A stretch of 59,290 nucleotides of DNA from Sphingobacteriaceae bacterium. GTDB taxonomy: Bacteria; Bacteroidota; Bacteroidia; B-17B0; Aurantibacillaceae. The stretch lies in assembly GCA_947453445.1 (NCBI GenBank), contig CANGGP010000015.1, forward strand, positions 1 to 59,290. The letters run 5' to 3'. Shown here in pieces: positions 37,693 through 55,429 of the stretch. Within the stretch, counting starts at the first letter, position 1; every line of letters starts with the position of its first letter. The notes below the pieces were generated by a model that had not been told where the DNA came from, made no database searches, and saw nothing but the letters and a program-made list of their open reading frames with translations. The position numbers and the translations under genes are program-made.

Positions 37693-40224
37693 ATGAGGAA
37701 GGTTTACATTCGGATTTTTACTTTGTTCTTTATCTTAATTGCGTTTCAGAAAATGACAGCGCAGGTATCTTTATACGCCTTTTCGCAATTTACGGCACCT
37801 TACACTAGCATTACCGGCGGAACCGTTTTCGGGAACACCTTAACCGATGATCAAGTTTTTGTGAATACCGGCGTACCGCTAGGGCAGGGTATGGGGGTTA
37901 ACGGGCCCGGTTTACCCATTGGCTTCACATTTACCATGAACGGCTTAATTTTTGACAAAATTAGCATCGATGCCAATGGATTTATAGGATTAGGAACCTC
38001 AAGCATCAGTCCTTTTTGCGAAACGTATTTAAACTCTCAATATACGCCTATTTCGGCTACATCATCTGTAATGCCGGTGTTTCAGCACAAAGTGGTAGGT
38101 TTTGGAATGGATTTACAAGGCCAAGCCACAGGCTCTGGTTCTGAATTAAGAATGCAAACCATTGGATCGTCTCCAAATCGTACAGCCGTGGTGCAATGGA
38201 CAAGTTATAGAAAATACAATAACACCGGTGATGATTTTAATTTTCAAATTCGCTTGATAGAAACTGCTAACATTATGGAAGTGCGTTATGGCAACTTTGT
38301 CAATAATGCCACTGCGGGATCTGCTCAAATTGGCTTAAGAGGGGCTTTAAACAACGATTTTAATAACCGCTTCACAAATGCATTAAATCCTTGGTCAAAT
38401 TCTGCGCCGGGTTCACTGGTGAATACAGCTGCCAATTTTAATGTGAATTTGGTGCCTGCTTCCGGTACAGTTTACCGTTGGACACCACCACCAATGTGTT
38501 CCGGCACACCTTCTGTAAACAATATTGTTGGTTCGCCAACGGTGATGTGCCCCGGTGGTTCTTCTACTTTAATGCTAACCGGCACTTATACCAATTCAGG
38601 CATCAGTTATCAGTGGCAAGCTTCTTCAACTTCTTCAACCGGACCATTTTCTGCCGCATCAGTGGGTGGCGTGCCGATTTATTATGCAAACAATGTGCCT
38701 TCAAGTGTTTGGTATCAATGCGTGGTAAGTTGCATGGGAAGTGGTCAATCGAGTGTTACGCAACCCATTCTATTACAAACCAGCAGTGCCTTAGTAAACA
38801 ACACTCCTTACCTCGAGGACTTTGAAAGCATAATTATCAATAACCAATTACCCAATTGTTCATGGACAGCCTCCAATCCATCAGTGATTTGTCAAACCTA
38901 TACTTCATCAAATACCAACAATCGCGTACCGCATTCCGGCTACGGTTTTGCTTCATTCAGATATGGTACCCAAACAAATGGTGATGTATTTTACACTAAC
39001 GGTATTCAACTATACGCAGGTGTTACTTATTCTGCATCTGTTTGGTATGTTAACGATGCTACGCCGGGCTGGAATCTTTTCTCTATGTCGATAGGTCCGA
39101 ATCAATCAACTTTAGGTTTAACAGCCATCGCTAGTCTCACCGGTAATATTGCAAACATAGCCTATCAATCACTGAGCAATACGTTTACGGTAGCAAACAA
39201 TGGTGTGTATTACGTCGCCATCCGTGCTTACGGAATAAATTCAACCCAATATTTAAGTTTTGATGATTTATCAATCACCGCACCATGCAGTTTAAATAGT
39301 TTGAGCATGAGTATCAATACCACGAATTCAGTTATTTGCAGTGGTCAGTCATCAACAATTAATGTAAACGGGGCCAATACTTATTCCTGGTCGAATGGTA
39401 GTAATGCCTCATCTATTACCGTGAGTCCGGTTACAACCAATACATTTACTGCTGTTGGAACTTTAACAAATACAGGATGTACCCAAACCTTGAGTCAAAT
39501 TATCCAAGTGAATCAATCGCCGGTTGTTAGTATTTTCGCCTCACCCCTTAGTGTATGTGTAGGTTCAACCTCAACACTTTTTGGATTGGGTGCTGATACA
39601 TTTACTTGGTCTAATGGTTCATCAACATACACAACAGTGGTGAGCCCAAGCGTCACTTCAACATATTCAGTGATTGGCACAAATACTTACGGTTGCCAGG
39701 GTGGCGCAAATATTCAAATAGTTGTATTGCCTAGTCCTACTGTTGCCGCAGTGATGTACCCCACACAAATCTGCGCCAATGAAACAGCAACATTAACCGG
39801 TTTTGGTGCGGCTTCTTACTATTGGCAAGGAAGTAATTTTATCTACAGCACTGCCAATAATTTTGTTGTTAAACCAAGCAGTAGCATTAATTTTACCTTA
39901 ACGGGCACCGGCACCAATGGATGCAGTGCTAGCACCAATATTTCACTGTTGGTGAATGCTTGCACCGCTTTAGGTGAGGAGACCTTGTTGGCAACAAATT
40001 ACAGCATCTTACCAAATCCATTCAATGAAAAATTTTTAATTCGCAGCAGCACCAATAACATTTACAACTTGAAATTGCATGATATAAGCGGCAAGTTGTA
40101 TTATCAAAAAAATAATTTACTGGGCGATCATGAAATTGCAATTGAATTGCAAGCAGGTATTTACTTTCTGAGCATTGAATCATTAAACGAAACCAAGGTC
40201 ATCAAAATGGTAAAAAGCGAGTAA
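37693..40224 (+). CDS. T9SS-exported modular surface protein, nidogen-like head
   Basis: 843 aa. Signal peptide 1-24 (ending MTAQ). The head, about 25-260, resembles the 'YAFSQFTAPYTSITGGT' region I know from Bacteroidota fibronectin-type proteins and is nidogen-like. Then come an Ig-like QW module (about 265-365), the FEG...DDL module (about 370-532), three Cys-containing Ig-like modules of ~73 residues (about 532-760, each ending in a NGC-like turn), and the type A sorting domain (about 762-843, YSILPNPFNEKF to KMVKSE). It is the first of six adjacent T9SS genes. I saw no clear terminator after it. Confidence 0.87.
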   Translation: MRKVYIRIFTLFFILIAFQKMTAQVSLYAFSQFTAPYTSITGGTVFGNTLTDDQVFVNTGVPLGQGMGVNGPGLPIGFTFTMNGLIFDKISIDANGFIGLGTSSISPFCETYLNSQYTPISATSSVMPVFQHKVVGFGMDLQGQATGSGSELRMQTIGSSPNRTAVVQWTSYRKYNNTGDDFNFQIRLIETANIMEVRYGNFVNNATAGSAQIGLRGALNNDFNNRFTNALNPWSNSAPGSLVNTAANFNVNLVPASGTVYRWTPPPMCSGTPSVNNIVGSPTVMCPGGSSTLMLTGTYTNSGISYQWQASSTSSTGPFSAASVGGVPIYYANNVPSSVWYQCVVSCMGSGQSSVTQPILLQTSSALVNNTPYLEDFESIIINNQLPNCSWTASNPSVICQTYTSSNTNNRVPHSGYGFASFRYGTQTNGDVFYTNGIQLYAGVTYSASVWYVNDATPGWNLFSMSIGPNQSTLGLTAIASLTGNIANIAYQSLSNTFTVANNGVYYVAIRAYGINSTQYLSFDDLSITAPCSLNSLSMSINTTNSVICSGQSSTINVNGANTYSWSNGSNASSITVSPVTTNTFTAVGTLTNTGCTQTLSQIIQVNQSPVVSIFASPLSVCVGSTSTLFGLGADTFTWSNGSSTYTTVVSPSVTSTYSVIGTNTYGCQGGANIQIVVLPSPTVAAVMYPTQICANETATLTGFGAASYYWQGSNFIYSTANNFVVKPSSSINFTLTGTGTNGCSASTNISLLVNACTALGEETLLATNYSILPNPFNEKFLIRSSTNNIYNLKLHDISGKLYYQKNNLLGDHEIAIELQAGIYFLSIESLNETKVIKMVKSE

Positions 40225-40332
40225 TTTTTATCTGCTTGCTGGTTGTTTTATTTTGTCCAAATCCTTTCTAATACCCAAATATCAACGATTTCGGGGAACA
40301 TTGTTAAAACTTAATTTTTTTTTAACCTGATG

Positions 40333-40365: not shown

Positions 40366-40389
40366 TGAAATAATTTAACTCACATAAAC

Positions 40390-43300
40390 ATGAAAAAAAG
40401 TTACAAAGCAATTAAAATGTTCGTCGTGCTCCTGGCACTGATGACAATGAAAATGAGCGCCCAGTTAAATGGTTTGTACACCATTAACTCTGCCTCGCCT
40501 GCCTCCACGTCAAACTACACAAGTTTCACATCCCTGGCTTCTGCCTTAAATAGTTTGGGTGTTTCAGGTCCGGTGACCGTTAACGTTGTGGCCAACTCAG
40601 GTCCTTACGTTGAGCAAATAACATTTAACCAATTTACCGGTATATCTGCTACAAACAGTGTATTGATTAATGGAAATGGCAATACCCTTACATTCGCTTC
40701 ATCAAACTCTGCTGCTCCTTGGACCATCTTAATGAATGGTGCAGATTATATGGCCATTACTAACTTAACAGTGACTGGAACAGGAAGCTATGCTTATGCT
40801 TTAATGTTGGTTGGTGGTGCAGATTATAATGGATTTTCAGGTTGTTATTTCGGTGTACCTGCAAACGGTACCTCAACCAGTCAAATCCCTGTTTGTATCA
40901 GCGGTTCAAACACTTCATACTCAGCCTTTGCAAATTCAGGAAACTATAATACATTTTTAAACTGTACTATGTTTTCAGGATATTGTGCTGTTTCTCACTT
41001 CGGTTATTCTGGGTCACCTTACAATACAGATAACAGATTCATCAGTTGTAATTTTACCGACTGGTATGTAATGAGCTGTTATGCTTATTACGCAAAGAAT
41101 TTAACCATTTCAAAATGTAATATTTCTCGTCCAACACGTACGGCTATTACCACAACTTATGGTATGTACGCATACTATTGCACAGGTTCATTGTTCGAAA
41201 AAAACAGACTTTTCCAATTGTTCGATGGTAGCCCAGGTTACACAGGTACTTTGTATGGACAATACTTATACTACAATCCAATTGCTAGTCCGGGTGTTCA
41301 ACAAAACAACTTCATCAATAACATTGTAAACATTGATAATTTTAATGGTTTCGTTTATGGAACTTATTGCTACTATTGGAACGGAAATTTTGATCACAAT
41401 ACAGTGAACATCGACATGCCGAACTACAACTACACCGGTACAGTTTATGGTTTCTATGGTTATGGTACTGCATCAACATATCCATTTAACTACAGAAACA
41501 ATTGTTTGACAATGAATTTAGGTGGATCAGGAGGGCATTATGCTTTCTATTGCCCTATCACTTCAGGCTTTACAATGAACAACAACAACATCATTAACTA
41601 CCGTTCAATTGGTACAAATTCAACAACCAATAACTACCACTCATATTGGAATGGTGCTTATTACAACCAAACTGCATTATTAGCTGCAGGCGCAAACGTT
41701 GGTGGCTCTATGTTGAATCCAAATTATTTGAATCCTGCTTCAACAGGTATCAATAACTTCTTACCTACTAATCCTGCAATGGATAACTTGGGTGCTGCCA
41801 TTGGCGTTCTTCAAGATAACAATAGCCAAGTACGTGGAACTACTCCTGATATCGGTGCTTTAGAATTTTTAAACACACCTTGTAGCGGTGCACCTCCTCT
41901 TACTTCAGTGCAAACACCTACAGCCATTCAATGTCCTAGTGTTGTATTAGGTTTAGGTTTTGTTAACTCTTATACTTTAGCTAACATGGGTTTCCAATGG
42001 ATGTCTTCAACTACTTCTAGTGTTGGACCTTTCACTGCTATTTCTGGTGCTACCAATCAAGCTTTAACTACGCCTCCTACAACTGTAAATACTTGGTTTA
42101 CTGCTTCAGTAACTTGTTTAAACGGTAACCAAGGTATCAACACCACTGCAGGTTTAGTTCAAATTGCAGGTACAACTACCAACTCTGTTCCTTACTACGA
42201 AAGTTTTGAAGGCATTAGCGGTGTGAACAAATTACCAAACTGTTCATGGTCTGCCAGCAGCTTGGGTGGAAATTGTTTAACATACAATACAACACAATTA
42301 AACAACCGTTTCCCTCGCACAGGTACTAATTTTGCTTCTTTCTATTACAATCCGGGTAACGTAAACAGCTTCTATACCAACGGAATTTATTTGAATGCAG
42401 GTGTTACTTATTCAGCTTCGATGTGGTATACTACTGAATATTATGGTTACACAAACTGGACAGATTTATCAATCTTAGTTGGTCCAAATCAAAGTTCAGT
42501 TGGTGCAGTTGTTGTAGCTACTACAGGTGGTAACGCTGTTAGCCCTGTTTACAAATCATTATCGAATACATTTACTGTAGGTACTTCAGGTTTATATTAT
42601 GTACAAGTTAGAGGTACAGGAAATACTTCAAGTTCAGCACAATATTTAACTTGGGATGATTTAAGAATTGAAGCACCATGTGCATTGAATTCTTCATCAA
42701 TTTCTGTTTCTAGCACAGGTACTGCTGTTTGTTTAGGTCAATCAGTTACTTTATCAGCTTCGGGCGCTACAAGTTACACTTGGAGCAATGGTTCTAACGC
42801 CAGCTCTATCACTGTAGTACCAAACGGTAACACCAATTATGTGGTAAGTGGTGCAAGCGCTCTTACCGGATGTGTGGCGCAAGCCAACTTAAACATTACT
42901 GTTAATCCATCACCTATTGTTTCAATTTTTGCAGGTACAGGTTCAGTTTGTAAAGGTAGCTCAATCAACTTAACAGCTTTTGGTGCTGCAAATTACAACT
43001 GGAGTGGTAATGCAGGTACTTCTGCAATGGTAAGTGTTTCACCTACTGTTACTACATCTTATACTGTTATCGGTATTAACTCATATGGCTGTACAAGTTC
43101 AGCTGTTCAAGTTGTGAATGTAAACAACGCTCCTGCGTTAAACGTTGGTGGTGTTAATACTTCAATGTGTGTTGGCGAAAGCATGACATTAACCGTGTCT
43201 GGTGCTTCAACTTACACTTGGACTTCTCCTTCAATCATGATTCAAGGTGCTAATGTTGTAGTTAGCCCGGTTAACACAACTACTTATGTTGTTACTGGTA

Positions 43301-43614
43301 CTGATGCCAACGGTTGTGTTGGTACATCAAACTATGTATTATCAGTTAACCTTTGTCAAGGTTTAAATGAAATCACAACTGCTAATGGTGTTAAATTATA
43401 TCCTAATCCAACCAAAGGCGAATTAAACATTGAATTCAATAACGACAATGCTAAAAACATTACTGTTACTGATTTAATGGGTAGAGTTGTAATGGCTACT
43501 ACACTTGGTAACAAGAAAAACAACCTAAGCTTAACTACTTTAGCAAACGGTGTTTATTATGTGAAAATTGAATCAAACAATTCAACTGAAGTTGTAAAAG
43601 TTGTAAAACAATAA
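40390..43614 (+). CDS. T9SS-exported beta-helix surface protein, copy 1
   Basis: 1074 aa. Signal peptide 1-25 (ending KMSAQ). The head (about 26-500) is a right-handed beta-helix of short Asn/Gly/Tyr-rich turns, closed by the TPDIGALEF motif at about 486-494, which marks the end of such helices. Next come an Ig-like QW module (500-595), the FEG...DDL module (600-764), three Ig-like modules (about 768-990) and a T9SS domain (about 995-1074, KLYPNPTKGELNIEF to KVVKQ). It is very similar along its length to the next gene. Beta-helices often bind or process polysaccharides, but no catalytic residues could be assigned. Confidence 0.9.
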   Translation: MKKSYKAIKMFVVLLALMTMKMSAQLNGLYTINSASPASTSNYTSFTSLASALNSLGVSGPVTVNVVANSGPYVEQITFNQFTGISATNSVLINGNGNTLTFASSNSAAPWTILMNGADYMAITNLTVTGTGSYAYALMLVGGADYNGFSGCYFGVPANGTSTSQIPVCISGSNTSYSAFANSGNYNTFLNCTMFSGYCAVSHFGYSGSPYNTDNRFISCNFTDWYVMSCYAYYAKNLTISKCNISRPTRTAITTTYGMYAYYCTGSLFEKNRLFQLFDGSPGYTGTLYGQYLYYNPIASPGVQQNNFINNIVNIDNFNGFVYGTYCYYWNGNFDHNTVNIDMPNYNYTGTVYGFYGYGTASTYPFNYRNNCLTMNLGGSGGHYAFYCPITSGFTMNNNNIINYRSIGTNSTTNNYHSYWNGAYYNQTALLAAGANVGGSMLNPNYLNPASTGINNFLPTNPAMDNLGAAIGVLQDNNSQVRGTTPDIGALEFLNTPCSGAPPLTSVQTPTAIQCPSVVLGLGFVNSYTLANMGFQWMSSTTSSVGPFTAISGATNQALTTPPTTVNTWFTASVTCLNGNQGINTTAGLVQIAGTTTNSVPYYESFEGISGVNKLPNCSWSASSLGGNCLTYNTTQLNNRFPRTGTNFASFYYNPGNVNSFYTNGIYLNAGVTYSASMWYTTEYYGYTNWTDLSILVGPNQSSVGAVVVATTGGNAVSPVYKSLSNTFTVGTSGLYYVQVRGTGNTSSSAQYLTWDDLRIEAPCALNSSSISVSSTGTAVCLGQSVTLSASGATSYTWSNGSNASSITVVPNGNTNYVVSGASALTGCVAQANLNITVNPSPIVSIFAGTGSVCKGSSINLTAFGAANYNWSGNAGTSAMVSVSPTVTTSYTVIGINSYGCTSSAVQVVNVNNAPALNVGGVNTSMCVGESMTLTVSGASTYTWTSPSIMIQGANVVVSPVNTTTYVVTGTDANGCVGTSNYVLSVNLCQGLNEITTANGVKLYPNPTKGELNIEFNNDNAKNITVTDLMGRVVMATTLGNKKNNLSLTTLANGVYYVKIESNNSTEVVKVVKQ

Positions 43615-43634
43615 TCATTTTTTTAATCCTTAAA

Positions 43635-43665
43635 AATCCCCGAGTAGAAAATCTACTCGGGGATT
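43635..43665 (+). terminator. Terminator after beta-helix copy 1
   Basis: A 14-bp perfect stem (AATCCCCGAGTAGA / TCTACTCGGGGATT, arms 43635-43648 and 43652-43665) with a 3-base loop is followed by T-runs. Confidence 0.93.
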
Positions 43666-43764
43666 TTTTTTGTTTCATTTATTCTGAAATTCGTTCGAAT
43701 TTCTGCACTATTGTTAATATTTTGATTTTGTTGAAAGAATATTTTAATGGGACTTAAAAATTAA

Positions 43765-43772: not shown

Positions 43773-43795
43773 TGAAATAAACTAACTTACAAAAC

Positions 43796-46700
43796 ATGAA
43801 AAAAAATTACAAAACCATTCGAATGTTTGTGGTGCTTATTGCACTGATGACAATGAAAATGAGCGCGCAGTTAAACGGCTTGTACACGATTAACGGTGGT
43901 GCTCCCGCATCAACTTCAAATTACACAAGTTTCACTGCTCTTGCCGCTGATTTAAACAGTTTAGGTGTTTCTGGTCCGGTTACTGTTAACGTTGTGGCCA
44001 ACTCAGGTCCATACAATGAACAAGTTACTTTTAACCAATTCACCGGTATTTCAGCAACAAACAGTGTATTGATTAATGGAAACGGTAATACTTTATCATT
44101 TTCATCTTCCAATTCTGCTGCTCCTTGGACAATGTTGATGAACGGTGCTGATTACATGGCCGTAACCAACATGACAGTGAGCGGTTCAGGTACATACGCT
44201 TATGCATTGATGTTGGTTGGTGGTGCTGATTACAATACATTCAACGGTTGTCGTTTTGCAGTGCCTGCTAATGGTACTTCAACCAGTCAAATCCCGGTTT
44301 GTATCAGTGGTTCTAACACTTCTTATTCAACTTTTGCGAATTCAGGAAACTATAACACATTTAATAACTGTACCATGTTTTCAGGATATTGTGCAGTTTC
44401 TCACTTTGGTTATTCTGGGTCACCTTATAATACCAATAATACCTTCAACAGTTGTAATTTCTTAGATTGGTATGTAATGAGTTGTTATGCTTATTATGCA
44501 AAAAACTTAACCATTTCAAGATGTAACATCGCGCGTCCAACACGTACGGCTATTACCACAACTTATGGTATGTATGCCTACTATTGCCAAGGTTCATTCT
44601 TCGAAAAAAACAGAATTTACAGTTTATTCGATGGTAGCCCAGGTTATACCGGAACATTATACGGTCAATACTTATATTATAATCCAATTGCCAGTCCTGG
44701 TGTTCAAACCAACACTTTCGTAAACAACATTGTAAACATTAATAACTTTAATGGATTTATGTATGGTACTTATACCTACTACTGGAATGGTAACTTTGAT
44801 CATAATACTGTAAACATCGATATGCCGGGTTACGGTTACACCGGAACCATTTATGGTTTCTATGGTTATGGTACTGCATCTACTTATCCATTTAACTACA
44901 GAAATAACATTCTTACCATGAATTTAGGTGGTTCAGGCGCACACTACGCTTTCTATTGCCCTATCACTTCAGGTTTCACCATGAGCAACAACAATATTAT
45001 TAACTACCGCTCAATTGGTACCAACTCTACAACTACTGATTATCACTCATATTGGAATGGTTCTTATTATAACCAAACACAATTATTAGCCGCCGGTGCT
45101 AACTTTGGTGGTAGCATGGTGAATCCTTTGTATATGAATCCAACTTCTACAATTTCATCAAACTTTTTACCAACCAATGTGGCCATGGATAATTTAGGTA
45201 CAGCGATTGGTGTGACTCAAGATAACAACAGCCAAACCCGTGGAACTACTCCTGATATCGGTGCATTGGAGTTCTTGAATACACCATGTAGCGGTGCTCC
45301 GGCATTAACCTCTGTTCAAACCCCAACAGCTGTTCAATGTCCTAGTGTAGTTTTAAACTTAGGTTTTGCTAGTTCTTATACAACAGCAAACGTTGGTGTT
45401 CAATGGATGTCATCAACCACTTCAAGTGTTGGTCCATTTACAGCTATTTCAGGCGCAACTACTCAAGCATTGAATACTGGTATGATCACACAAAATACTT
45501 GGTACACTGCTTCAGTTACTTGTTTGAATGGTAACCAAAGTATTAATACAACTGCCGGTTTGGTTCAAATTGCAGGTACTACTACTATGAATGCTCCTTA
45601 TTATGAAAATTTTGAAGGCATTAACGGTTTAAACGGCTTACCAAACTGTTCATGGTATTCTCCAATTTTAGGTAACGGTCTTTATACTTACACAAGTAGT
45701 TCAAGTAATAACCGTATTCCTTATTCAGGTACTAAATTTGGTGCTTTCGCGGTTTCTCCAATTGGTTCTGATTACTTATACACCAATGGTATTTACTTAA
45801 ACGCAGGTGTAACTTATTCTACCGGTATTTATTTCCAAACTGAATATTATGGTTATACCAATTTCTCTGATTTATCAATTTTGTTAGGTACTTCACAAAG
45901 CACAACAGGTTTAGTTAGTTTAGCCTCTACCGGTGGTCCTGCTTTAAGCCCTAGCTACAAATTATTATCGAACACTTTCACAGTATCAACTTCTGGTTTA
46001 TATTATTTTGCAATTCGTGCTACCAAAGCTTCAGGATCTGCTCAATACTTATCATTTGATGATTTCTTTGTAACTGTACCTTGTAACTTAAATCCATTAA
46101 ACGTTTCAATTGCTGCAACTGCTACACAAGCTTGTGTTGGTCAAAATGTAATTTTAACCGCTTCTGGTGCTAATACTTATTCATGGAGCACAGGTGCAAC
46201 TACATCAACAATCAGTGTTTCTCCTAATTCAAATGCAACTTATAATGTAATTGGAACAAGTGCATTAAGTGGTTGTGGTGCTAATGCAAGTAAATTAATT
46301 CTTGTTAATCCTACACCGCAAGTGTCTATTTTCACAAATGCTACGTCAATCTGTAAAGGTTCATCAGCTAATTTATCAGCTGTAGGTGCCGTAGGTTACA
46401 ACTGGAGCAATGCGCAAACCAGCAACATTATTTCTGTTAGTCCTACCGTTACAACTACATACAGTGTAATTGGTGTTAACCAATATGGTTGTCAAGGTAA
46501 TGCTACACAAGTAATCACAGTAAACAATTTACCGAGCATTACTGCTGCTGCTACCAATGTTCAAATGTGTGTTGGTGAAACTGTAACGCTTTCTGCTACA
46601 GGTGCATCTACTTATGTTTGGAATTCAAACAACAATACTGTTTATGGTGCTAGCGCCGCTGTATCGCCGTTATCAAGTATTACCTATACTGTAACCGGTA

Positions 46701-47017
46701 CCGATGTGAATGGTTGTAGCAATACTTCAAACATCAGTTTAAGTGTTAATGCTTGTACTGGTTTAGGAGAAATTACAACCACTGCAAATGGTGTTAAAGT
46801 TTATCCAAATCCTACAAAAGGTGAACTTAACATTGAGTTCTTAAACGATGCTTCTAAAACTGTTGATGTGTTAGATTTAACCGGTCGTTTGGTTCAATCA
46901 AATAACACTAACAGCAAAAAAATGAATGTAAACTTAAGCAGCTTGTCAAATGGAATTTACTATGTAAAAATCCAAAGCAACAAAACTGTTGAAGTTGTTA
47001 AAGTTGTAAAACAGTAA
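43796..47017 (+). CDS. T9SS-exported beta-helix surface protein, copy 2
   Basis: 1073 aa, with the same architecture as the gene before it: signal peptide 1-25, beta-helix head to about 495 (ending TPDIGALEF), QW module, FEG...DDL module (599-762), three Ig-like modules and T9SS domain (VKVYPNPTKGELNIEF to KVVKQ). The head is nearly identical in protein to copy 1, with many silent base changes, while the FEG module and Ig-like modules differ more. This points to an old duplication kept under protein-level constraint. A terminator follows. Confidence 0.9.
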   Translation: MKKNYKTIRMFVVLIALMTMKMSAQLNGLYTINGGAPASTSNYTSFTALAADLNSLGVSGPVTVNVVANSGPYNEQVTFNQFTGISATNSVLINGNGNTLSFSSSNSAAPWTMLMNGADYMAVTNMTVSGSGTYAYALMLVGGADYNTFNGCRFAVPANGTSTSQIPVCISGSNTSYSTFANSGNYNTFNNCTMFSGYCAVSHFGYSGSPYNTNNTFNSCNFLDWYVMSCYAYYAKNLTISRCNIARPTRTAITTTYGMYAYYCQGSFFEKNRIYSLFDGSPGYTGTLYGQYLYYNPIASPGVQTNTFVNNIVNINNFNGFMYGTYTYYWNGNFDHNTVNIDMPGYGYTGTIYGFYGYGTASTYPFNYRNNILTMNLGGSGAHYAFYCPITSGFTMSNNNIINYRSIGTNSTTTDYHSYWNGSYYNQTQLLAAGANFGGSMVNPLYMNPTSTISSNFLPTNVAMDNLGTAIGVTQDNNSQTRGTTPDIGALEFLNTPCSGAPALTSVQTPTAVQCPSVVLNLGFASSYTTANVGVQWMSSTTSSVGPFTAISGATTQALNTGMITQNTWYTASVTCLNGNQSINTTAGLVQIAGTTTMNAPYYENFEGINGLNGLPNCSWYSPILGNGLYTYTSSSSNNRIPYSGTKFGAFAVSPIGSDYLYTNGIYLNAGVTYSTGIYFQTEYYGYTNFSDLSILLGTSQSTTGLVSLASTGGPALSPSYKLLSNTFTVSTSGLYYFAIRATKASGSAQYLSFDDFFVTVPCNLNPLNVSIAATATQACVGQNVILTASGANTYSWSTGATTSTISVSPNSNATYNVIGTSALSGCGANASKLILVNPTPQVSIFTNATSICKGSSANLSAVGAVGYNWSNAQTSNIISVSPTVTTTYSVIGVNQYGCQGNATQVITVNNLPSITAAATNVQMCVGETVTLSATGASTYVWNSNNNTVYGASAAVSPLSSITYTVTGTDVNGCSNTSNISLSVNACTGLGEITTTANGVKVYPNPTKGELNIEFLNDASKTVDVLDLTGRLVQSNNTNSKKMNVNLSSLSNGIYYVKIQSNKTVEVVKVVKQ

Positions 47018-47091: not shown

Positions 47092-49419
47092 ATGAAAAAA
47101 ATATACCAAACAATTAAAGCATTTTCAATAATGCTACTTTTAGGGAGTGGATCTTTAAATGCACAAGGCTATTGCGCTAATGCTGCGCTTTACACCGCCG
47201 ATGAAGAAATTTATAACTTCATGCTAAATGGCGCTCAAACCAATACTTTGTATTCGTTCACCAACGGTTGTTCAACACCTGCGCCAGGACCGGGTTCATC
47301 GTTGAGCTTGTATTCAAATTTTAAATCACTTGGGGTGTTTACCAATTTAGTGGTTGGCTCTACTATATCCTTTTCAGTTGCTGAGAATGAGTGTGATGGG
47401 GCAACTTATTATGCCAATGGAATTGGAATCTGGATTGACTTTAACCAAAATGGTTTATGGACAGATCCGGGTGAAACCATTTTTACTTCGCCTTCAACCA
47501 TCACAAGTCCTCAAAACATTGCAGGAACCTTTTCGGTGCCTTCAACCGCCATTGCAGGAACAACTGTTGTTAGGGTAATTTGTGCTGAAGGTTATTCAGG
47601 CACAGGTTTAACCCCTTGTATGTCGACAGTTTATTATGGTGAAGTAGAGGATTACGTTGTAAACATTATTCCTGCTGTGCCTTGTTCAGGTGCACCAACT
47701 TCAAACACTGCCGTTGTTACACCAACAAGTCCATTGTGTTCTGGCTCAAGTGCTCAAATTAACTTGGCCAATACTTACACTGTTGGAGGCATCACTTACC
47801 AATGGCAATCATCTACAACTTCTTCAGTTGGTCCTTGGACAGCTGTAAGTAATGCCACGTCATATGCATTATCTACACCAACTTTAAGCAGCCCAATTTG
47901 GTATCAATGTGTTGTTACTTGTACCAACGGTAATACATCAATCAACACTGTACCGGGTGCAGTTTCAATTGCCCCAACAACAACCAACACTGTACCTTAT
48001 TATGAAGGTTTTGAGGGTATTGCAACCAATAATCAATTGCCAAATTGTTCATGGAACGCAAATAACATTGGTTCTACATCAAGAACTTATATTTCTTCTT
48101 CTAATCAAAACAGAGTGCCAAGAACAGGTCAAAAATTTGCTTCATTCTATTATTCACCGGGTACCACAGGTTTCTTCTGGACCAACGGTATTCGCCTTGA
48201 AGCAGGTGTAACTTATTCGGCTTCTGTTTGGTTTACAACTGAATATTATGGTTATACCAACTGGACTGATATGTCAATTTTATATGGTACAGCGCAATCA
48301 ACAACCGGTTTAACAACAATTGCAACCACTAGTGGTTCAGCTGTTAGTCCTGTTTACAAATCATTATCGAACACATTTACCGTTGCTACTTCTGGCTTGT
48401 ATTATATTGCCATCAGAGGAACCAGCAATGGCTCTTGTTGTGGTTACAATTTATCATGGGATGATTTAGCGATCGAAATCCCTTGTACTTTAAATTCAGT
48501 GAGTGTGGCGGTAAATTCTCCAACCAACGCAATTTGCGCCGGAAATTCTATTGCATTAACGGCTTCAGGAGCTAATACTTACTCATGGAATACAGGTGCA
48601 ACAACTGCTTCAATCAACGCAGCGCCAAATTCTAATTTAACTTATTACGTTACCGGAACAAGTTCATTAAGTGGATGCTCTGGAACTGGCTCGTTAAATG
48701 TGATTGTAAACCCTTCACCAGTTGTTTCTATTTTTGCTGATAAGGTAAATGTATGTAAAGGCAAACCTGCAACATTGTTTGCATATGGTGCAAGTTCTTA
48801 CAACTGGAGTACACTTTCTAATTCAACGCAAATTGTTGTAACACCTACCACAACTACATCTTATACCGTTAATGGTACAAATTCATTTGGTTGTACCGGA
48901 ACTGCTGTTCAACAAGTATCTGTATTGCCTCAACCAAATGTTGTTGCTGCAGGAACATCTACATCAATGTGTGTTGGTGAAACAGTAACACTTCAAGCGA
49001 GTGGTGCTGCAACTTACCAATGGTTGTCGCCATCTATCTTTGTTCAGTCTGCACAAGCAATTGTATCGCCAAATACCACCACCACTTTTACCTTAACCGG
49101 TACTGATGCGAATGGTTGTACTAACACTTCAAATTTAACCTTAAACGTGAATGCATGTACTGGTATTAATACCGTTGCAAATAACGCAGGTGATTTAAAA
49201 GTTTATCCAAATCCTAGTAAGGGAGAATTCACTTTAGAATTGGGTAACTCATTTGATAAAACAATTGAAGTTGTTGATTTTACCGGTAAATTGATTCAAA
49301 GCAATAAAACAAACAACGCCAAGATTAATCTTAACATTAGCCAATATTCAAATGGTATTTATTATGTGAAAGTAATTTCAAATAATTCCGTGAATGTGAT
49401 TAAAGTTGTTAAAGAATAA
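47092..49419 (+). CDS. T9SS-exported surface protein with GEVED head
   Basis: 775 aa. Signal peptide 1-25 (ending SLNAQ). The head (about 26-198) is a GEVED domain: APGPGSSLSLYSNF, WIDFNQNGLWTDPGE and the defining YYGEVEDYVV. The chassis follows: Ig-like QW module (200-298), FEG...DDL module (300-464, with the GSCCGYNLSWDD loop), three Ig-like modules (to about 690) and T9SS domain (KVYPNPSKGEFTLEL to KVVKE). The C-terminal two thirds are closely related in protein to the next gene. The 30-base gap after the upstream terminator has no visible promoter box. Confidence 0.9.
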   Translation: MKKIYQTIKAFSIMLLLGSGSLNAQGYCANAALYTADEEIYNFMLNGAQTNTLYSFTNGCSTPAPGPGSSLSLYSNFKSLGVFTNLVVGSTISFSVAENECDGATYYANGIGIWIDFNQNGLWTDPGETIFTSPSTITSPQNIAGTFSVPSTAIAGTTVVRVICAEGYSGTGLTPCMSTVYYGEVEDYVVNIIPAVPCSGAPTSNTAVVTPTSPLCSGSSAQINLANTYTVGGITYQWQSSTTSSVGPWTAVSNATSYALSTPTLSSPIWYQCVVTCTNGNTSINTVPGAVSIAPTTTNTVPYYEGFEGIATNNQLPNCSWNANNIGSTSRTYISSSNQNRVPRTGQKFASFYYSPGTTGFFWTNGIRLEAGVTYSASVWFTTEYYGYTNWTDMSILYGTAQSTTGLTTIATTSGSAVSPVYKSLSNTFTVATSGLYYIAIRGTSNGSCCGYNLSWDDLAIEIPCTLNSVSVAVNSPTNAICAGNSIALTASGANTYSWNTGATTASINAAPNSNLTYYVTGTSSLSGCSGTGSLNVIVNPSPVVSIFADKVNVCKGKPATLFAYGASSYNWSTLSNSTQIVVTPTTTTSYTVNGTNSFGCTGTAVQQVSVLPQPNVVAAGTSTSMCVGETVTLQASGAATYQWLSPSIFVQSAQAIVSPNTTTTFTLTGTDANGCTNTSNLTLNVNACTGINTVANNAGDLKVYPNPSKGEFTLELGNSFDKTIEVVDFTGKLIQSNKTNNAKINLNISQYSNGIYYVKVISNNSVNVIKVVKE

Positions 49420-49437
49420 TTCCTTTTCTCTTTAGAA

Positions 49438-49467
49438 AAAACCTCCACTTTTTTAAGTGGAGGTTTT
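49438..49467 (+). terminator. Terminator after the GEVED-head gene
   Basis: A 13-bp perfect stem (AAAACCTCCACTT / AAGTGGAGGTTTT, arms 49438-49450 and 49455-49467) is followed by T-runs. Confidence 0.92.
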
Positions 49468-49545
49468 TTTTTATCTTTTTTTGTTAATTATTTGCCTGAA
49501 GTAAATTTTAATTGTAAATTGAATCCAAAATAAAAACTAACAAAC

Positions 49546-51708
49546 ATGAAAAAAATCTATTCTATGATTAAAGCGAAATTGCTGATTTTGCCTTTATTGT
49601 TCTTATTCAGCAATGCGAATGCGCAATTTTGTGTAACGCCAACACAAACAGTTGGTATTTTTCCAACCTTGATCACACAAACCACCACTGTATATACAGG
49701 GGCAATTTGTTTTACCTTTAATGCAACGCAAGGTTGTACTTATTTCTTCTCAACATGTAATTTAAGTACTGCAGATACATATTTGTATTTGTACAATGGT
49801 ATTGGTGGAACCAATATCGGCGGTTGGGATGACCAATGTAGTGTTCAATCACAATTTACTTGGGTTTGTCCTACAACAGGTATTTATTCTGTGTTGTTAG
49901 CACAATATGTTTGTTCAACTTTGAGTTCAGGTACTGCCATGTCGTATTCAACAAGTTGTGCTTCTGTTCCTTGTTCAGGCACACCTTCTTCAAATACTGC
50001 TATTCCAATTCCAACCACTCAGGTTTGTCCGGGTTCAAGCGGAACAGTTGCTTTAGCCAATACCTACACTGTTGCAGGCATTGCTTACCAATGGATGACT
50101 TCAACAACTTCTTCAGTTGGTCCTTGGACTTCTGTAACCACCGGCACCAATCAAACTTTAATTACACCAACGTTGGCAGCACCGGCATGGTATAACTGTG
50201 TGGTTACTTGTACCAATAGTTCAAATACCTTTACAACCAATGTAGCAGGATTTAACGTAGCCAGCACCACCACAAATACAGCGCCATATTACGAAGGTTT
50301 TGAAGGTGTGAGTTTAAATGATCAACTTCCAAATTGTTCATGGAAAGCAACCGGCTTCACTTCTAATCCTAGAACTTATACTTCTGCTCAAAATCAAAAT
50401 AGAGTGCCGCGTACAGGAAATAAATTTGCTGCCTTTTATTACTCTCCGGGTAATACCAATTATTTCTGGACCAATGGAATTTGGTTAGATGCAGGTGTTA
50501 CATATTCGGCATCGTTGTGGTATACAACTGAATATTATGGTTACACCAACTGGTCTGATTTGTCAATTCTTTATGGAACTGCTCAATCTTCAACAGGTTT
50601 AACACCAATCGTTTCTACCAATGGTGCAGCAGTTAGTCCGATTTACAAATCATTATCAAATACATTTAGTGTAACAAGTTCAGGTTTATATTACATTGCC
50701 ATTAAAGGTACTAGCAATGGTTCATGTTGTGGTTATAACTTATCATGGGATGATTTAGCGATTGAAATTCCTTGTTCTGCAAATGCAGTAAGCGTAGCAG
50801 TTTCAGCACCTTCAAGTTCAATTTGTCAAGGTAATTCAGTTACTTTAACAGCAAGTGGTGCCAATACTTACACATGGAATACCGGTGCTACCGGTGCTTC
50901 ATTAACTGCAGCGCCAAATTCAAACTTAAGTTATATTGTTTCAGGAACCAGCACCTTAACAGGTTGTGTAGGCACTGCAACACGAAACATTTCGGTAAAT
51001 CCTTCACCGGTAGTTTCAATTTTTGCAGATAAAATCAATGTTTGTAAAGGTAAATCAGCAACTTTGTTTGCTTATGGTGCAAGCAATTATAACTGGAGTA
51101 CACTTTCAAATTCTACACAAATTGTTGTAACGCCTACAACAACAACTTCTTATACAGTAATCGGTACCAATGCATTTGGTTGCAGTGGTCAAGCTGTTCA
51201 ACAAGTATCGGTATTACCTCAACCTAATGTGGTTGCTGCAGGTACTTCAACAAGTATGTGTGTTGGTGAAACAGTAACATTGCAAGCTTCGGGTGCTGCA
51301 ACTTATCAATGGTTAACACCTGCGGTTTATATTCAAGCTGCACAAGCCATTGTTTCTCCGAATACCACAACAACTTATTCATTAACAGGAACCGATGCAA
51401 ACGGTTGTACTAACACTTCTAACATTACAATTAGTGTAAGCGGATGTACTGGTATCAATACTGTTGCGAACAACAGCGGCGATATTAAAGTATTCCCTAA
51501 TCCAAGCAAAGGTGAATTTGTAATTGAAATGGGAACGACTTATGATAAAACAATTGAAGTGGTTGATTTTACCGGTAAGGTGATCCAATCTAGCAAAACT
51601 TCAAGTGCAAAAGTGAACGTAAACATCAATAATTACGCAAACGGCATTTACTACGTGAAAGTAATTTCAAATGGTGGTGTTGATGTGATTAAAGTTGTAA
51701 AAGACTAA
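49546..51708 (+). CDS. T9SS-exported surface protein with PPC-like head
   Basis: 720 aa. Signal peptide 1-26 (ending NANAQ). The head (about 27-145) looks like a bacterial pre-peptidase C-terminal (PPC-like) beta-sandwich, with TADTYLYLYNG and a Cys-rich core. The rest is the common chassis: QW module, FEG...DDL module (245-410, again GSCCGYNLSWDD), three Ig-like modules and T9SS domain (KVFPNPSKGEFVIEM to KVVKD). It shares very similar FEG and Ig-like modules with the gene at 47092, but a different head. Confidence 0.9.
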   Translation: MKKIYSMIKAKLLILPLLFLFSNANAQFCVTPTQTVGIFPTLITQTTTVYTGAICFTFNATQGCTYFFSTCNLSTADTYLYLYNGIGGTNIGGWDDQCSVQSQFTWVCPTTGIYSVLLAQYVCSTLSSGTAMSYSTSCASVPCSGTPSSNTAIPIPTTQVCPGSSGTVALANTYTVAGIAYQWMTSTTSSVGPWTSVTTGTNQTLITPTLAAPAWYNCVVTCTNSSNTFTTNVAGFNVASTTTNTAPYYEGFEGVSLNDQLPNCSWKATGFTSNPRTYTSAQNQNRVPRTGNKFAAFYYSPGNTNYFWTNGIWLDAGVTYSASLWYTTEYYGYTNWSDLSILYGTAQSSTGLTPIVSTNGAAVSPIYKSLSNTFSVTSSGLYYIAIKGTSNGSCCGYNLSWDDLAIEIPCSANAVSVAVSAPSSSICQGNSVTLTASGANTYTWNTGATGASLTAAPNSNLSYIVSGTSTLTGCVGTATRNISVNPSPVVSIFADKINVCKGKSATLFAYGASNYNWSTLSNSTQIVVTPTTTTSYTVIGTNAFGCSGQAVQQVSVLPQPNVVAAGTSTSMCVGETVTLQASGAATYQWLTPAVYIQAAQAIVSPNTTTTYSLTGTDANGCTNTSNITISVSGCTGINTVANNSGDIKVFPNPSKGEFVIEMGTTYDKTIEVVDFTGKVIQSSKTSSAKVNVNINNYANGIYYVKVISNGGVDVIKVVKD

Positions 51709-51729
51709 TATTTAAGCTTTTTAATTCAG

Positions 51730-51755
51730 AGCCTCCTCAAGCAATTGGGGAGGCT
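51730..51755 (+). terminator. Terminator after the PPC-head gene
   Basis: Stem AGCCTCCTCAA / TTGGGGAGGCT (51730-51740 and 51745-51755, one T-G wobble) with a 4-base loop is followed by six T. Confidence 0.88.
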
Positions 51756-51877
51756 TTTTTGTTTAAATTTTTTTACAGATTATACGATTATTTTCTCACA
51801 AAGAAGGTTTTTTAATTTATTTTATCTACATTTAGGTTTTAATTATTATTATTTAACAAACTAAATTACTCGATTTT

Positions 51878-54800
51878 ATGAAAAAAAAACTTTTACATCT
51901 GCTGGTTATGGTTTTTTGCATAACTAGTTATCAAATCAAATCACAATGTAATAATACAAGTTCCTTTGGCTCTGCAACAGCACCTGCGCAAGGAGCTTCC
52001 TTAACTGTTACCACTTGCCAGTATGGTGGAGAGTATTGTACAATTTCATCTGTCGTTTCAGGAAATACTTATTCTACAGGATCTTCAGTGAGCACAGATT
52101 TTTTTACAATTCGTTCCGGTTCATCTTCCGGTCCGGTTGTTGCTTTCGGTCAATCACCTTTGGTTTGGACTGCAACCAGTGCAGGAACCTATTATATGCA
52201 TTGTAATACGAATAGTTCATGTGGAACTATTTCAGCTTGCAGAAGTGTGTTTTTTGGATGTTTGAATCCTGCTTGTAACAATACAAGTGCTTATGGCACC
52301 GCTTCAGCACCGGCTTTAAATAATACAATTACAATCACAACTTGTAATTATGCAGGTGAGTATGCTACAATTTCAGGTGTAGTTGCAGGAAATACTTACA
52401 GTTCATCATCAAGTGTTTTAACTGATTACATTACAATCAGAAGCGGTAGTTCTTCTGGGCCTGTAGTAGCAACCGGAGTAAGTCCTGTTGTTTGGGTGGC
52501 TCAAGTTGCCGGTACACACTATATCCACGTTAACTCTAATTCATCTTGTGGTACTGTTAGTTCTTGTCGTTCGAATATTTTATCATGTTCAGCAAGTCCA
52601 CTACCTCCAAATTGTACAGGAACTCCACCTTCAGCTACTGCTGTAATTTCAACTACCAGCGGTTGTCCGAATTCTCCGTTTGGTCTTACTGCTACAGGTA
52701 CTGTTGCGGCAACAGGTGTAACTTATCAGTGGCAATCATGTCCTACTACAACAGGTACTTGGGTTGGTGTTCCTACAGCTACCAATGTTATATTATCAAC
52801 CAGCGTTTCTGCCACAACATACTTTCGTTTGTTGACAACCTGTACTTTAAGTGCATTATCAGCAACCTCTTCAATAGTAAGTTATTCAGTTGTTAATCCT
52901 GGTCCTTGTGTTTGTAATGCTTATCAGGCTTGTGCTGTAACACTTACAAGTGATGAAGAAATTTTGGGTGTTGCAGTTGGATCTATGAATAATGTGAGTA
53001 CTTGTACTACAACTGCTCCAGGACCTGGTTCTTCGAATCAATTGTATAGTAATTATACCAATTTTGTTACCCCTGCAAGCGTATGTCCAGGCGCTGTTGT
53101 GCCATTCACCATTACTGCCGGAACTTGTGGCGGTTGGTATGGTACATCATTGGTAATGTATATTGATTATAACTCTAATGGTGTTTTTACAGATGCAGGT
53201 GAAATGGTTTATTTGAACACTGCCGCAACGCAAGGTCTTAATTCAGGAACTTTTACAGTTCCTATTACAGCTGCAATTGGTACAACTCGCTTGAGAATTG
53301 TTTTAACAGAAGGTACAGGAAGCACGCCTCCATCTGTTGGAAGTATTTCAAACTGGGGTGAAGTTGAAGATTATTGCTTTACAGTTCTTTCACCTCCAAC
53401 CATTACCGCTTCGGGTGGTTCAGTTTGTCCGGGTGCTCCATTTGTAATTACGCCTTCAGGTGCATCAACTTATACTTATATTGCTTCTACAGGAACTTTG
53501 TCTACAGGTAGCACAGGTACTGTAAATCCAATTACCAATTCAACTTATACAGTTACCGGAACCGGTTCAAACGGCTGTGTAACGCCTTCTAACAGTGCTT
53601 TTGCAGGTACAGTTGCAGTTGCCTTGTTGCAATCTCCAACCTTAACATCAGTATCTTCACCAACAGCTTATTGTAGAGGTGGTTCGGCCACTTTAACTGT
53701 TGCTGGCGCAAATACTTATACATGGACCGGTTTAGGTTCAAATGCATCTAGTGTAAGCGTTAGTCCAACTGTTACAACAGTATATACTGTTTCAGGTACA
53801 GGTACCAATGTTTGTAATGGTGTTGTAGCTGTAACTGTTGTTGTGAATCAAATTCCAACAATTACCGTAAATAGTGGAACATTGTGTACAGGCTATAACT
53901 TTACTTTAACGCCTGGTGGGGCTTCAACCTATACAATTACAGGACCATCAGGAACTGTATCACCTGTTGTTAATCCTTTAGCGAACATCAACTATACAGT
54001 GAACGGAACAAGTACTGCAGGTTGTGCTTCTATTCCTTCGGTGGCACCAATTTCAACAGTGCTTGTTATTCCTTCACCAACCATTACTGCATCAAGTGGT
54101 ACTGTTTGTATTGGGTTAAACTTCAGCTTGAATCCAACTGGTTCAAATGGCACTTACTCGGTGAATGGTGTTACAATCTCAAATGCGGCCGGAGCCTACA
54201 GCCCTGCTGTGAATACAACTTATTCAGTGAGTGGTACAAATAACAATGGTTGTGTATCTTTCTCACCTGCTGTTGCCAACGTAACAGTTGTACCTATTCC
54301 TACCATCACGGCAGTTGCCTCATCGCCTTCAATTTGTGTAGGTCAGGCCTCAACCAATTTAAGTGCTTCGGGAGCCAACACCTATACTTGGAGCAATAAT
54401 GCAACCGGCGCAAGTGTTGCCGTATCACCAAACCAAACAACTGTGTTTCAAGTAACCGGTACCAGCACATTGTTGTGTAACAGCTCAACAACCGTAAACG
54501 TTTTTGTTTGGCAATTGCCTCCGGTATTGTTGAATACATCACAAAACTTTGTATGTGTGGGCGGACCATCAACTTTAATAGCGCAAGGTGCCAATACATA
54601 TTCATGGTCAAATGGTTCTTCATCATTTAGTACTGTGGTTAATCCTACAATCTCATCAAATTACTCAGTAACAGGAACAGATTTGAATGGTTGTTATAAT
54701 ACCGCTACTGTTGCAATTAATGTAAATACTGTTGTAATGAATGTGGCGCCTACATCAACCACAGTTTGTTTAGGTTCATCATTTACATTCAGTGCAAGTG

Positions 54801-55429
54801 GTGCTACTACTTATTCATGGAATGGTACTTTTGGATTTAATACTTTCTTGGCTACACCTACCGGTCCTACTGCGTATACAGTTACTGCGGTAGATCCAAA
54901 CAACTGTCCTCAATCAAAAGTAGTATTGGCCAACGTATATCAATTACCAGTTGTAACTGCTGCTGCCAGCAGAACTTTAATTTGCTTGAATGAATCAGCT
55001 ACGATTACTGCAAGTGGTGCAAGTACTTATTCATGGAGCAATGGTGCATCTACAAGTTCAATTGTTGTTTCTCCTAACATCGATATCACTTACATGTATA
55101 CTGTTGTTGGTACCGATACCAATAATTGTACAGCTACTGCCTCTCAATCATTGGTTGTTAGCAAGTGTGTTGGTTTAGAATCTAGAGGTGTAGAAGCCAA
55201 TTTATGGAGTGTTTATCCTAACCCTGGTTACGGTGTTTACACTGTTGAATTGGGTGGCAGCTCAGTAAAATCAATTCAAGTAATTGATGTTACCGGAAGA
55301 ATCATCCTTAACGAAAAATCAAACAGTGAGAAATTTATTGTGAACATCAATAATTATCCAGCTGGTGTATATTACTTAAAAGTAAGTACTACTGATTCTA
55401 ACAAAACCATCAAATTAATTAAGGAATAA
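51878..55429 (+). CDS. Large T9SS-exported protein with eight Ig-like modules
   Basis: 1183 aa. Signal peptide 1-22. Two copies of a ~105-residue Cys-rich head unit (about 24-130 and 132-238), each with CNNTS, an E-Y-TIS-VVSGNTY stretch and IRSGSSSGPVV. Then a QW-like module (about 245-340), a GEVED domain (343-503, ending WGEVEDYCFTVL), eight tandem ~72-residue Ig-like modules (about 505-1095), and the T9SS domain (SVYPNPGYGVYTVEL to KLIKE). It lacks the FEG...DDL module of the five preceding genes. A near-consensus -7 box (TACATTTA) lies about 50 bases upstream. Confidence 0.9.
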   Translation: MKKKLLHLLVMVFCITSYQIKSQCNNTSSFGSATAPAQGASLTVTTCQYGGEYCTISSVVSGNTYSTGSSVSTDFFTIRSGSSSGPVVAFGQSPLVWTATSAGTYYMHCNTNSSCGTISACRSVFFGCLNPACNNTSAYGTASAPALNNTITITTCNYAGEYATISGVVAGNTYSSSSSVLTDYITIRSGSSSGPVVATGVSPVVWVAQVAGTHYIHVNSNSSCGTVSSCRSNILSCSASPLPPNCTGTPPSATAVISTTSGCPNSPFGLTATGTVAATGVTYQWQSCPTTTGTWVGVPTATNVILSTSVSATTYFRLLTTCTLSALSATSSIVSYSVVNPGPCVCNAYQACAVTLTSDEEILGVAVGSMNNVSTCTTTAPGPGSSNQLYSNYTNFVTPASVCPGAVVPFTITAGTCGGWYGTSLVMYIDYNSNGVFTDAGEMVYLNTAATQGLNSGTFTVPITAAIGTTRLRIVLTEGTGSTPPSVGSISNWGEVEDYCFTVLSPPTITASGGSVCPGAPFVITPSGASTYTYIASTGTLSTGSTGTVNPITNSTYTVTGTGSNGCVTPSNSAFAGTVAVALLQSPTLTSVSSPTAYCRGGSATLTVAGANTYTWTGLGSNASSVSVSPTVTTVYTVSGTGTNVCNGVVAVTVVVNQIPTITVNSGTLCTGYNFTLTPGGASTYTITGPSGTVSPVVNPLANINYTVNGTSTAGCASIPSVAPISTVLVIPSPTITASSGTVCIGLNFSLNPTGSNGTYSVNGVTISNAAGAYSPAVNTTYSVSGTNNNGCVSFSPAVANVTVVPIPTITAVASSPSICVGQASTNLSASGANTYTWSNNATGASVAVSPNQTTVFQVTGTSTLLCNSSTTVNVFVWQLPPVLLNTSQNFVCVGGPSTLIAQGANTYSWSNGSSSFSTVVNPTISSNYSVTGTDLNGCYNTATVAINVNTVVMNVAPTSTTVCLGSSFTFSASGATTYSWNGTFGFNTFLATPTGPTAYTVTAVDPNNCPQSKVVLANVYQLPVVTAAASRTLICLNESATITASGASTYSWSNGASTSSIVVSPNIDITYMYTVVGTDTNNCTATASQSLVVSKCVGLESRGVEANLWSVYPNPGYGVYTVELGGSSVKSIQVIDVTGRIILNEKSNSEKFIVNINNYPAGVYYLKVSTTDSNKTIKLIKE

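What the first reader, a model, noticed from the sequence alone, without database searches (positions are those of the whole stretch)
37693..55429. Six-gene T9SS surface-protein array with a shared chassis and exchangeable heads
Six large genes in one orientation, nothing between them, each with a signal peptide and a T9SS type A sorting domain. Five share the same order of QW module, FEG...DDL module, three Ig-like modules and sorting domain, while the N-terminal head differs: nidogen-like, beta-helix (twice), GEVED, PPC-like. The sixth drops the FEG module and expands the Ig-like modules to eight. Seen directly: the modules and their order. Known: these tails are recognised by T9SS in Bacteroidota. 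Inferred: a locus that diversifies surface binding by swapping heads on a constant stalk. I do not know whether this arrangement has been described.
Basis: partly seen in the sequence, partly recalled or inferred. Interest (0 to 1): 0.7.

Follow-up and report, generated by a model that had tools for sequence, protein, structure and literature searches.

The report
Mix-and-match surface proteins, shared stalk
An uncultured Bacteroidota bacterium carries a row of secreted surface proteins with different tips on a common stalk, and relatives show that DNA recombination near the tip-stalk joint keeps some stalks alike while the tips differ, a plausible way to refit the cell surface with new tips.

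Summary
All six genes end in a T9SS type A tail; QW is in six, FEG in five, three Ig-like modules in five and eight in the sixth. Corrections: most genes are followed by a strong terminator, and gene 6 also holds GEVED and two N-terminal repeats. The array lies between pcm/OMP and SOD; eight relatives with both borders seen carry 1-5 T9SS genes there, no two alike. Across 72 chassis copies in 18 genomes of one genus, head type and chassis partly disagree (24 changes for 8 classes; one GEVED chassis clade rejected). DNA joints explain it: window genes 2/3 share head+QW but not the stalk, genes 4/5 the reverse. The strongest within-genome breakpoints (7 of 151 pairs, four genomes) all fall at or just inside the start of FEG. 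In G041 two tandem genes are virtually identical from the head/QW border through the terminator while their heads differ at many synonymous sites. So head (often with QW) and stalk (sometimes with terminator) recombine as units. Helix heads model as beta-helices; Ig modules match the GhpA grappling hook. A new variant of known adhesin shuffling; binding is inferred.

The parts
37693..40224 (+). Gene 1 (843 aa): NIDO-type head (1-268), QW 269-362, FEG 367-531, three Ig-like modules 540-756, T9SS tail 773-841
   Evidence: same head class in 8 of 72 chassis copies
40390..43614 (+). Gene 2 (1074 aa): parallel beta-helix head, QW 497-593, FEG 594-763, three Ig-like 770-987, T9SS tail 1003-1074
   Evidence: model (PfbA Z 27.4, 327 residues, rmsd 3.6)
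43796..47017 (+). Gene 3 (1073 aa): head 87% and QW 84% identical to gene 2, stalk only 55%
47092..49419 (+). Gene 4 (775 aa): GEVED head, QW 197-294, FEG 296-464, three Ig-like 472-688, T9SS tail 704-775
49546..51708 (+). Gene 5 (720 aa): short 'PPC-like' head (no family hit), chassis 75% identical to gene 4
51878..55429 (+). Gene 6 (1183 aa): two N-terminal repeats (by eye), QW 246-338, GEVED 425-501, no FEG, eight Ig-like modules 509-1095, T9SS tail 1112-1183
42175..42249 (+). Joint of gene 2: coding range of chassis columns 101-125 (start of FEG), the most conserved 25-column stretch, where similarity of genes 2 and 3 falls off
   Evidence: breakpoint column 125, LLR 21.7; coordinates
43632..43668 (+). 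Intrinsic terminator after gene 2 (17-pair stem)
49434..49471 (+). Intrinsic terminator after gene 4 (17-pair stem)
51728..51757 (+). Intrinsic terminator after gene 5 (13-pair stem)
55449..55479 (+). Intrinsic terminator after gene 6 (14-pair stem)
36687..37604 (+). Left flank: protein of no known family, labelled OMP here by eye; relatives of it (38-53%) flank the array in 6 genomes besides the window
35938..36624 (+). Left flank: pcm, protein-L-isoaspartate O-methyltransferase (PF01135 E 2.3e-53)
55533..56144 (+). Right flank: Fe/Mn superoxide dismutase (Sod_Fe_C E 4.1e-38), the anchor used for synteny

Best explanation
The locus is a tandem, recombining array of T9SS-secreted surface proteins made of two kinds of exchangeable unit: a head unit (signal peptide and head, often with QW) and a stalk unit (FEG, Ig-like modules, T9SS tail, in some cases with the terminator behind it). 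The direct-repeat stalks, above all the conserved start of FEG, give ordinary homologous recombination somewhere to cross. Gene conversion or unequal crossing-over between paralogues makes some stalks alike within a genome, duplicates or deletes genes, and joins existing heads to other stalks. Most genes are probably separate transcription units; the protein leaves through T9SS and the Ig stalk presents the head, to bind or act on polysaccharides, particles or cells. Shown from sequence: modules, synteny with variable content, tree conflict, breakpoints. Predicted: beta-helix and Ig folds. Inferred: RecA-type mechanism, surface anchoring, ligand binding, separate expression.
For: Modules and tails. 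T9SS machinery in the same genome: SprA 2309.8 bits, GldL 212.7 bits; PorX in this window. Strong chassis matches (E<=1e-70, full or partial) in 20 of 40 genus genomes. Variable content at pcm/OMP-SOD. Tree: 24 head changes over 66 labelled rows and 8 classes, against 7 without swaps (shuffles: mean 33.9, minimum 29); one GEVED chassis clade rejected, p-AU 1.7e-38, quick tree. Breakpoints: LLR>20 in 7 of 151 within-genome pairs, all at columns 104-136 of 506; in 2 of 2405 between-genome pairs, one of them the same G004 gene. G019: gene L099_3805 matches another helix gene of that genome on the left (78% nt) and its C4 neighbour on the right (88%). G041: 1 synonymous and 0 nonsynonymous differing codons in 575 stalk codons, against 81 and 73 in 480 head codons; near-identity runs on about 54 nt past the stop, through a hairpin seen by eye, then ends. 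The joint is the most conserved 25-column stretch of the chassis (0.639, median 0.438).
Against: Over all head types the chassis did not group by genome more than by head (42 against 39 of 81 quartets); the genome-wise signal (FEG 44 of 47) appears after leaving out NIDO, CUB-like heads and two close genome pairs, chosen. The seven strong breakpoint pairs are about four independent cases, and the focus on the joint weakens at lower thresholds (LLR>8: 15 of 27 within-genome pairs at columns 95-140). The stalk+terminator link is not general: 3' flanks do not match in window genes 4/5 or in the G019 pair. The promoter+head link is weak: of 12 within-genome pairs with like 5' flanks, 4 have different heads, and G041 1718/5142 lack it. 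Most genomes are fragmented assemblies. No within-population variation was tested. In G001 and the G004/G005 PPC pair identity varies along the gene without one clean step.
Confidence: 0.7

Rival explanations
1. Plain tandem duplication and divergence: each gene was copied whole, heads diverged fast and stalks slowly under stronger constraint, with no exchange between heads and stalks.
For: Near-identical tandem copies exist (G041 trio). Head labels are far from random on the chassis tree (24 changes against 33.9 for shuffles), so much association is inherited. NIDO keeps mostly its own chassis lineage. In the G004/G005 PPC pair the left end of the chassis is less alike than the rest (0.73 against 0.87), so some rate difference along the chassis exists without exchange.
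Against: Synonymous sites step together with the others in G041 (81 synonymous changes in the head, 1 in the stalk), which protein constraint does not explain. Unlike heads sit on 75-95% identical stalks, and window genes 2/3 show the opposite direction.
Confidence: 0.16
2. A dedicated diversification system: a site-specific recombinase or other programmed process swaps heads at the joint, as in a shufflon.
For: The strongest breakpoints fall at the same joint.
Against: No inverted repeats of 30 nt or more in window 36500-56200 (seed 16); no recombinase or transposase family among the 38 window ORFs of 150 aa or more scanned, though some had no family hit and shorter ORFs were not scanned; joints differ (head/QW in G041, start of FEG elsewhere), which fits homology better than a fixed site.
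Confidence: 0.05
3. Repeated horizontal arrival of whole genes from relatives explains the varying content, with little recombination inside the array.
For: Head families are shared across the genus and gene number varies; by the count, 49 of 72 copies lie outside the SOD interval or on contigs not linked to it.
Against: In several genomes stalks of paralogues with unlike heads match each other better than the same-headed gene elsewhere, and in G041, G004 and some weaker cases their 3' flanks too.
Confidence: 0.09

Closest known systems
Porphyromonas gingivalis gingipains/HagA (Kgp, RgpA), PMC5266723 (outline, abstract and passages seen)
   Same: T9SS-exported surface proteins with modular adhesin domains that vary between strains; the authors invoke domain rearrangement, allelic exchange and gene conversion
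   Different: There the variation described is in the catalytic domain and the C-terminal adhesin domains of strain variants; here N-terminal heads vary among tandem paralogues and the stalk is the shared part
Fibrillar adhesins with shuffled tip domains (CshA/PAD family; GEVED defined there), PMC10952558 (outline, abstract and passages seen)
   Same: Tip plus repeated stalk plus surface signal; GEVED near the tip; domain shuffling proposed as driver
   Different: That work infers shuffling from architectures across phyla; here joints are visible in DNA between paralogues of one genome; the sorting signal is a T9SS tail
GhpA grappling hook of Aureispira sp. CCB-QB1 (solved structures; a review passage, PMC11205867, describes heptameric T9SS-secreted hooks in ixotrophy without naming GhpA)
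   Same: The Ig-like stalk modules match GhpA by sequence profile (E 2.9e-102, 15 stretches, 5898-aa chain) and by fold
   Different: GhpA is one giant protein; these are 720-1183 aa with distinct heads; shared Ig repeats do not show a predatory role
Streptococcus pneumoniae adhesin PfbA and tailspike/lyase beta-helices
   Same: The head of gene 2 models as a parallel beta-helix (PfbA Z 27.4)
   Different: About 9% identity; fold only, no shared function shown

Membership tests
T9SS type A cargo | C-terminal type A sorting domain over curated cut-off | tested here: met
   6 of 6
T9SS type A cargo | T9SS machinery in the genome | tested here: met
   SprA, GldL and 13 PorP-family genes over cut-off; PorX in the window; other components not searched
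T9SS type A cargo | N-terminal signal peptide | tested here: inconclusive
   signal-like N-termini by eye; no predictor run
T9SS type A cargo | Actual export and surface anchoring | not testable with these tools
   needs proteomics
Modular adhesin with exchangeable tip (fibrillar adhesin type) | Tip domain plus repeated stalk domains plus surface signal | tested here: met
Modular adhesin with exchangeable tip (fibrillar adhesin type) | Different tips on homologous stalks with recombination joints | tested here: met
   about four independent strong cases
Modular adhesin with exchangeable tip (fibrillar adhesin type) | Demonstrated ligand binding | not testable with these tools
   no ligand data
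Choice-of-anchor J domain (FEG module) | NF038128 match | tested here: inconclusive
   1 of 5 FEG modules at E 8.8e-4, no Pfam hit, no solved chain by sequence; jelly-roll-type match 4d0q Z 8.9, 110 residues, in a model of middling confidence there
GhpA-type grappling hook | Homologous Ig-like stalk repeats | tested here: met
GhpA-type grappling hook | Giant chain with neck and base forming a heptameric hook | not tested
   these chains are 720-1183 aa; oligomer state and base were not examined

The most novel reading that the evidence does not exclude
In this genus the pcm/OMP-SOD interval is a standing exchange locus: head units are gained, lost and re-paired with stalk units often enough that strains of one species differ in displayed heads, a recombination-driven surface repertoire that uses the conserved start of FEG as its joint.
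Probability: 0.35. Interest if true: 0.72.

Novelty: new variant of a known kind. Interest (0 to 1): 0.52.

Why it matters
Domain shuffling of adhesins is usually inferred from architectures across distant bacteria. Here joints can be read in DNA between paralogues of one genome, with head and stalk as separate units and a conserved joint. If true, it predicts which parts of such T9SS surface proteins vary fast in nature, gives a simple test (within-species sequencing across one syntenic interval), and warns that annotating these genes by their long conserved stalks hides the part that probably carries specificity.

Tried and rejected
A named-organism search gave little: 4 loci, two of them chassis members from uncultured Bacteroidota MAGs, so the genus is unnamed here. 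A Bacteroidota promoter pattern (consensus recalled) gave 5 matches in the window against 7.8 expected, none in the array gaps; TAnnTTTG-like letters are visible by eye in gaps 2-3 and 6-SOD, which proves nothing. Inverted repeats as a shufflon sign: none of 30 nt or more. AU tests for the C4, C3 and PPC chassis clades did not finish. Quartets over all head types gave no preference. The head of no other helix-class member than gene 2 was modelled. Head classes came from single-linkage BLAST; its 13-member cluster was split by eye into GEVED, CUB-like and other, and one open-ended 57-residue head was put into GEVED by eye. Rows dropped: copies whose best domain began after model position 10, ended before 350 or scored 250 or less (72 kept); 6 rows without a class (3 'other', 3 'single') left out of label counts; pairs with fewer than 250 shared columns left out of the breakpoint scan. 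Of the 83 matches listed, several partial ones (G013:C12, G042:C12, G000:C44, G009:C245, G046:C2, G001:C1:212612) were not fetched by the fetch from genomes.
Full report
WHAT IS THERE. Six ORFs of 720-1183 aa run on the + strand from 37693 to 55429. All end in a T9SS type A sorting domain over the curated cut-off. With module profiles built from 72 related copies (69 for Ig), QW is found in 6 of 6, FEG in 5 of 6, three Ig-like modules in genes 1-5 and eight in gene 6. I add that gene 6 also carries GEVED and two N-terminal repeats (by eye), and that hairpin terminators stand after genes 2, 4, 5 and 6 and by eye after gene 3, so most genes look like separate transcription units. The genome holds at least 150 places with this tail (150 of 240 candidates were scored), so T9SS tails as such are ordinary here; SprA, GldL and PorP-family genes are present.

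THE CHASSIS IN RELATIVES. The 484-aa chassis of gene 5, used as query, has matches at E<=1e-70 (full or partial chassis) in 20 of 40 genomes of the genus. I fetched up to 20 kb around SOD in 37 genomes besides the window, in three of them 40 kb, and most other full copies, and kept 72 chassis copies from 18 genomes. Heads fall into a helix class (30), a GEVED/CUB-like cluster (13), NIDO (8) and smaller classes of 6, 5, 4 and 2, with 4 singles; two copies have no head beyond a 26-residue start.

THE LOCUS. Oriented on SOD, the interval behind pcm and/or OMP holds: window NIDO-helix-helix-GEVED-PPC-gene 6; G041 helix-C6-helix-helix-helix; G012 helix-C6-C3; G046 helix-GEVED-GEVED-C3; more distant T9SS genes in G006 (2), G018 (3), G044 (2), G007 (1), G053 (5). 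These nine genomes show both borders, and no two agree in number, size and head class. In further genomes T9SS genes stand next to SOD but the contig ends before the left border (for example G010, G022, G045, G020); in G019 three other ORFs lie inside the row, and in G001 only one chassis gene stands next to SOD. In others SOD has other neighbours (for example G004, G005, G008, G015, G003, G002). By the count, 23 of 72 chassis copies lie at the SOD interval and 49 elsewhere or on contigs not linked to it.

HEADS AND STALKS DISAGREE. On the chassis tree 66 labelled rows need 24 head changes for 8 classes, against 7 if heads never moved and 33.9 on average (minimum 29) for shuffled labels: the association is partly inherited, partly broken. 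Genome labels need 39 changes against 51.3 for shuffles (minimum 47). Genes of one genome with unlike heads are sister stalks or share a mixed clade in the window (GEVED/PPC), G019, G017, G016, G046/G012 and G004/G005. Holding all nine GEVED chassis together is rejected (p-AU 1.7e-38, quick tree). Over all head types, quartets show no preference for genome over head (42 against 39). Leaving out NIDO, CUB-like heads and the close pairs G004/G005 and G012/G046, a choice made after seeing that result, gives genome-wise grouping for FEG in 44 of 47, Ig1 39 of 47, QW 33 of 47, Ig2 25 of 34, Ig3 28 of 34, tail 21 of 34; resampling genomes, the QW interval includes zero and the tail interval touches it. 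This fits QW travelling more with the head.

JOINTS IN THE DNA. Window genes 2 and 3 share head and QW (78-92% aa per 50-residue block up to residue 600) and then drop to 46-72%. Genes 4 and 5 are unlike in the head and 48-92% per block in the chassis. A two-segment likelihood scan finds LLR>20 in 7 of 151 within-genome pairs, all at columns 104-136, and in 2 of 2405 between-genome pairs, one of which is the same G004 gene; within-pair shuffles give a 99.9% point of 10.7. At LLR>15 it is 10 of 11 within-genome pairs at columns 95-140, at LLR>10 12 of 16, at LLR>8 15 of 27; between genomes 1 of 6, 9 of 52 and 27 of 133. The seven strongest pairs come from G019 (2), G004 (1), G041 (3) and the window (1). 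In G004 a GEVED gene and a PPC gene go from 59% to 93% nt at column 104 and stay alike for about 260 nt past the stop, where one contig ends. In G041 genes L058:1718-4924 and 5142-8429 differ by one synonymous codon in the last 575 codons and in the stop codon; the next mismatch towards the head is at nt 1472 (codon 491), and the profile places the chassis start after residue 489; near-identity runs about 54 nt past the stop, through a hairpin seen by eye, and ends. The heads differ at 81 synonymous and 73 nonsynonymous codons over 480 (sums checked). Like 3' flanks go with like stalks in G041, G004, G012, G016 and one G001 pair, but not in window genes 4/5 or the G019 pair; of 12 within-genome pairs with like 5' flanks, 8 have the same head class (window 2/3, G009, G041, five in G001) and 4 do not (three in G001, one in G005). 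So a stalk+terminator unit is seen in some cases, and a promoter+head unit is only suggested.

WHY THE JOINT THERE. Columns 101-125 (around the PYYEGFEG and LPNCSW letters) are the most conserved 25-column stretch of the chassis (0.639, median 0.438). A conserved stretch would serve homologous recombination; it may equally be conserved for folding. This is inference.

FOLDS AND FUNCTION. The head of gene 2 models as a parallel beta-helix (10-residue mean pLDDT mostly 56-87 between residues 111 and 380, dipping to 42 near 175; mean of the whole model 58.7; PfbA Z 27.4, then tailspikes, epimerases and polysaccharide lyases). The Ig modules match GhpA of Aureispira by profile and by fold. FEG is weakly jelly-roll-like. 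That these are tip-presenting surface proteins is inferred from the folds and the T9SS tail; no ligand is known.

PRIOR WORK. P. gingivalis T9SS proteins vary by domain rearrangement and exchange (PMC5266723, abstract and passages); tip shuffling in fibrillar adhesins is proposed in PMC10952558 (abstract and passages); a Flavobacterium psychrophilum paper (PMC5808330, passages) reports an inverted repeat with an adhesin and a PorP/SprF gene but, in the passages seen, not this pattern. Ten searches of the held library (only listings seen for papers not named here) listed no paper on a T9SS array with head and stalk units; that library lacks most subscription journals, so this is weak evidence of novelty.

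VERDICT. A new variant of a known kind. How often it happens and what the heads bind are open.

Noticed in passing
window 29596-31152 (+): PorX, the T9SS response regulator with a PglZ domain (NF052313, 818 bits), lies about 6.5 kb upstream of the array.
   Followed up: partly
window 33375-34796 (-) and 11763-12353 (+): Two bacterial sugar transferases (PF02397; the first also TIGR03025 over cut-off), possibly for surface polysaccharide.
   Followed up: no
window 5298-7451 (+): A further T9SS cargo: M43 peptidase with PKD domain and Por_Secre_tail.
   Followed up: no
G000 (own genome): At least 150 T9SS type A tails in 3.7 Mb, with Ig-like modules in many other large ORFs, up to 2964 aa.
   Followed up: no
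G001:C1 about 1276380, 2523016, 3938642 (L122, L064, L121): Three similar helix-head genes dispersed over a single-contig genome; stalks 86-88% and heads only 64-68% identical.
   Followed up: partly
L123 4328-5509 and L124 1607-3409: Chassis copies with a 26-residue signal-like start directly on QW and no head; the L123 place is interrupted by a stop.
   Followed up: no
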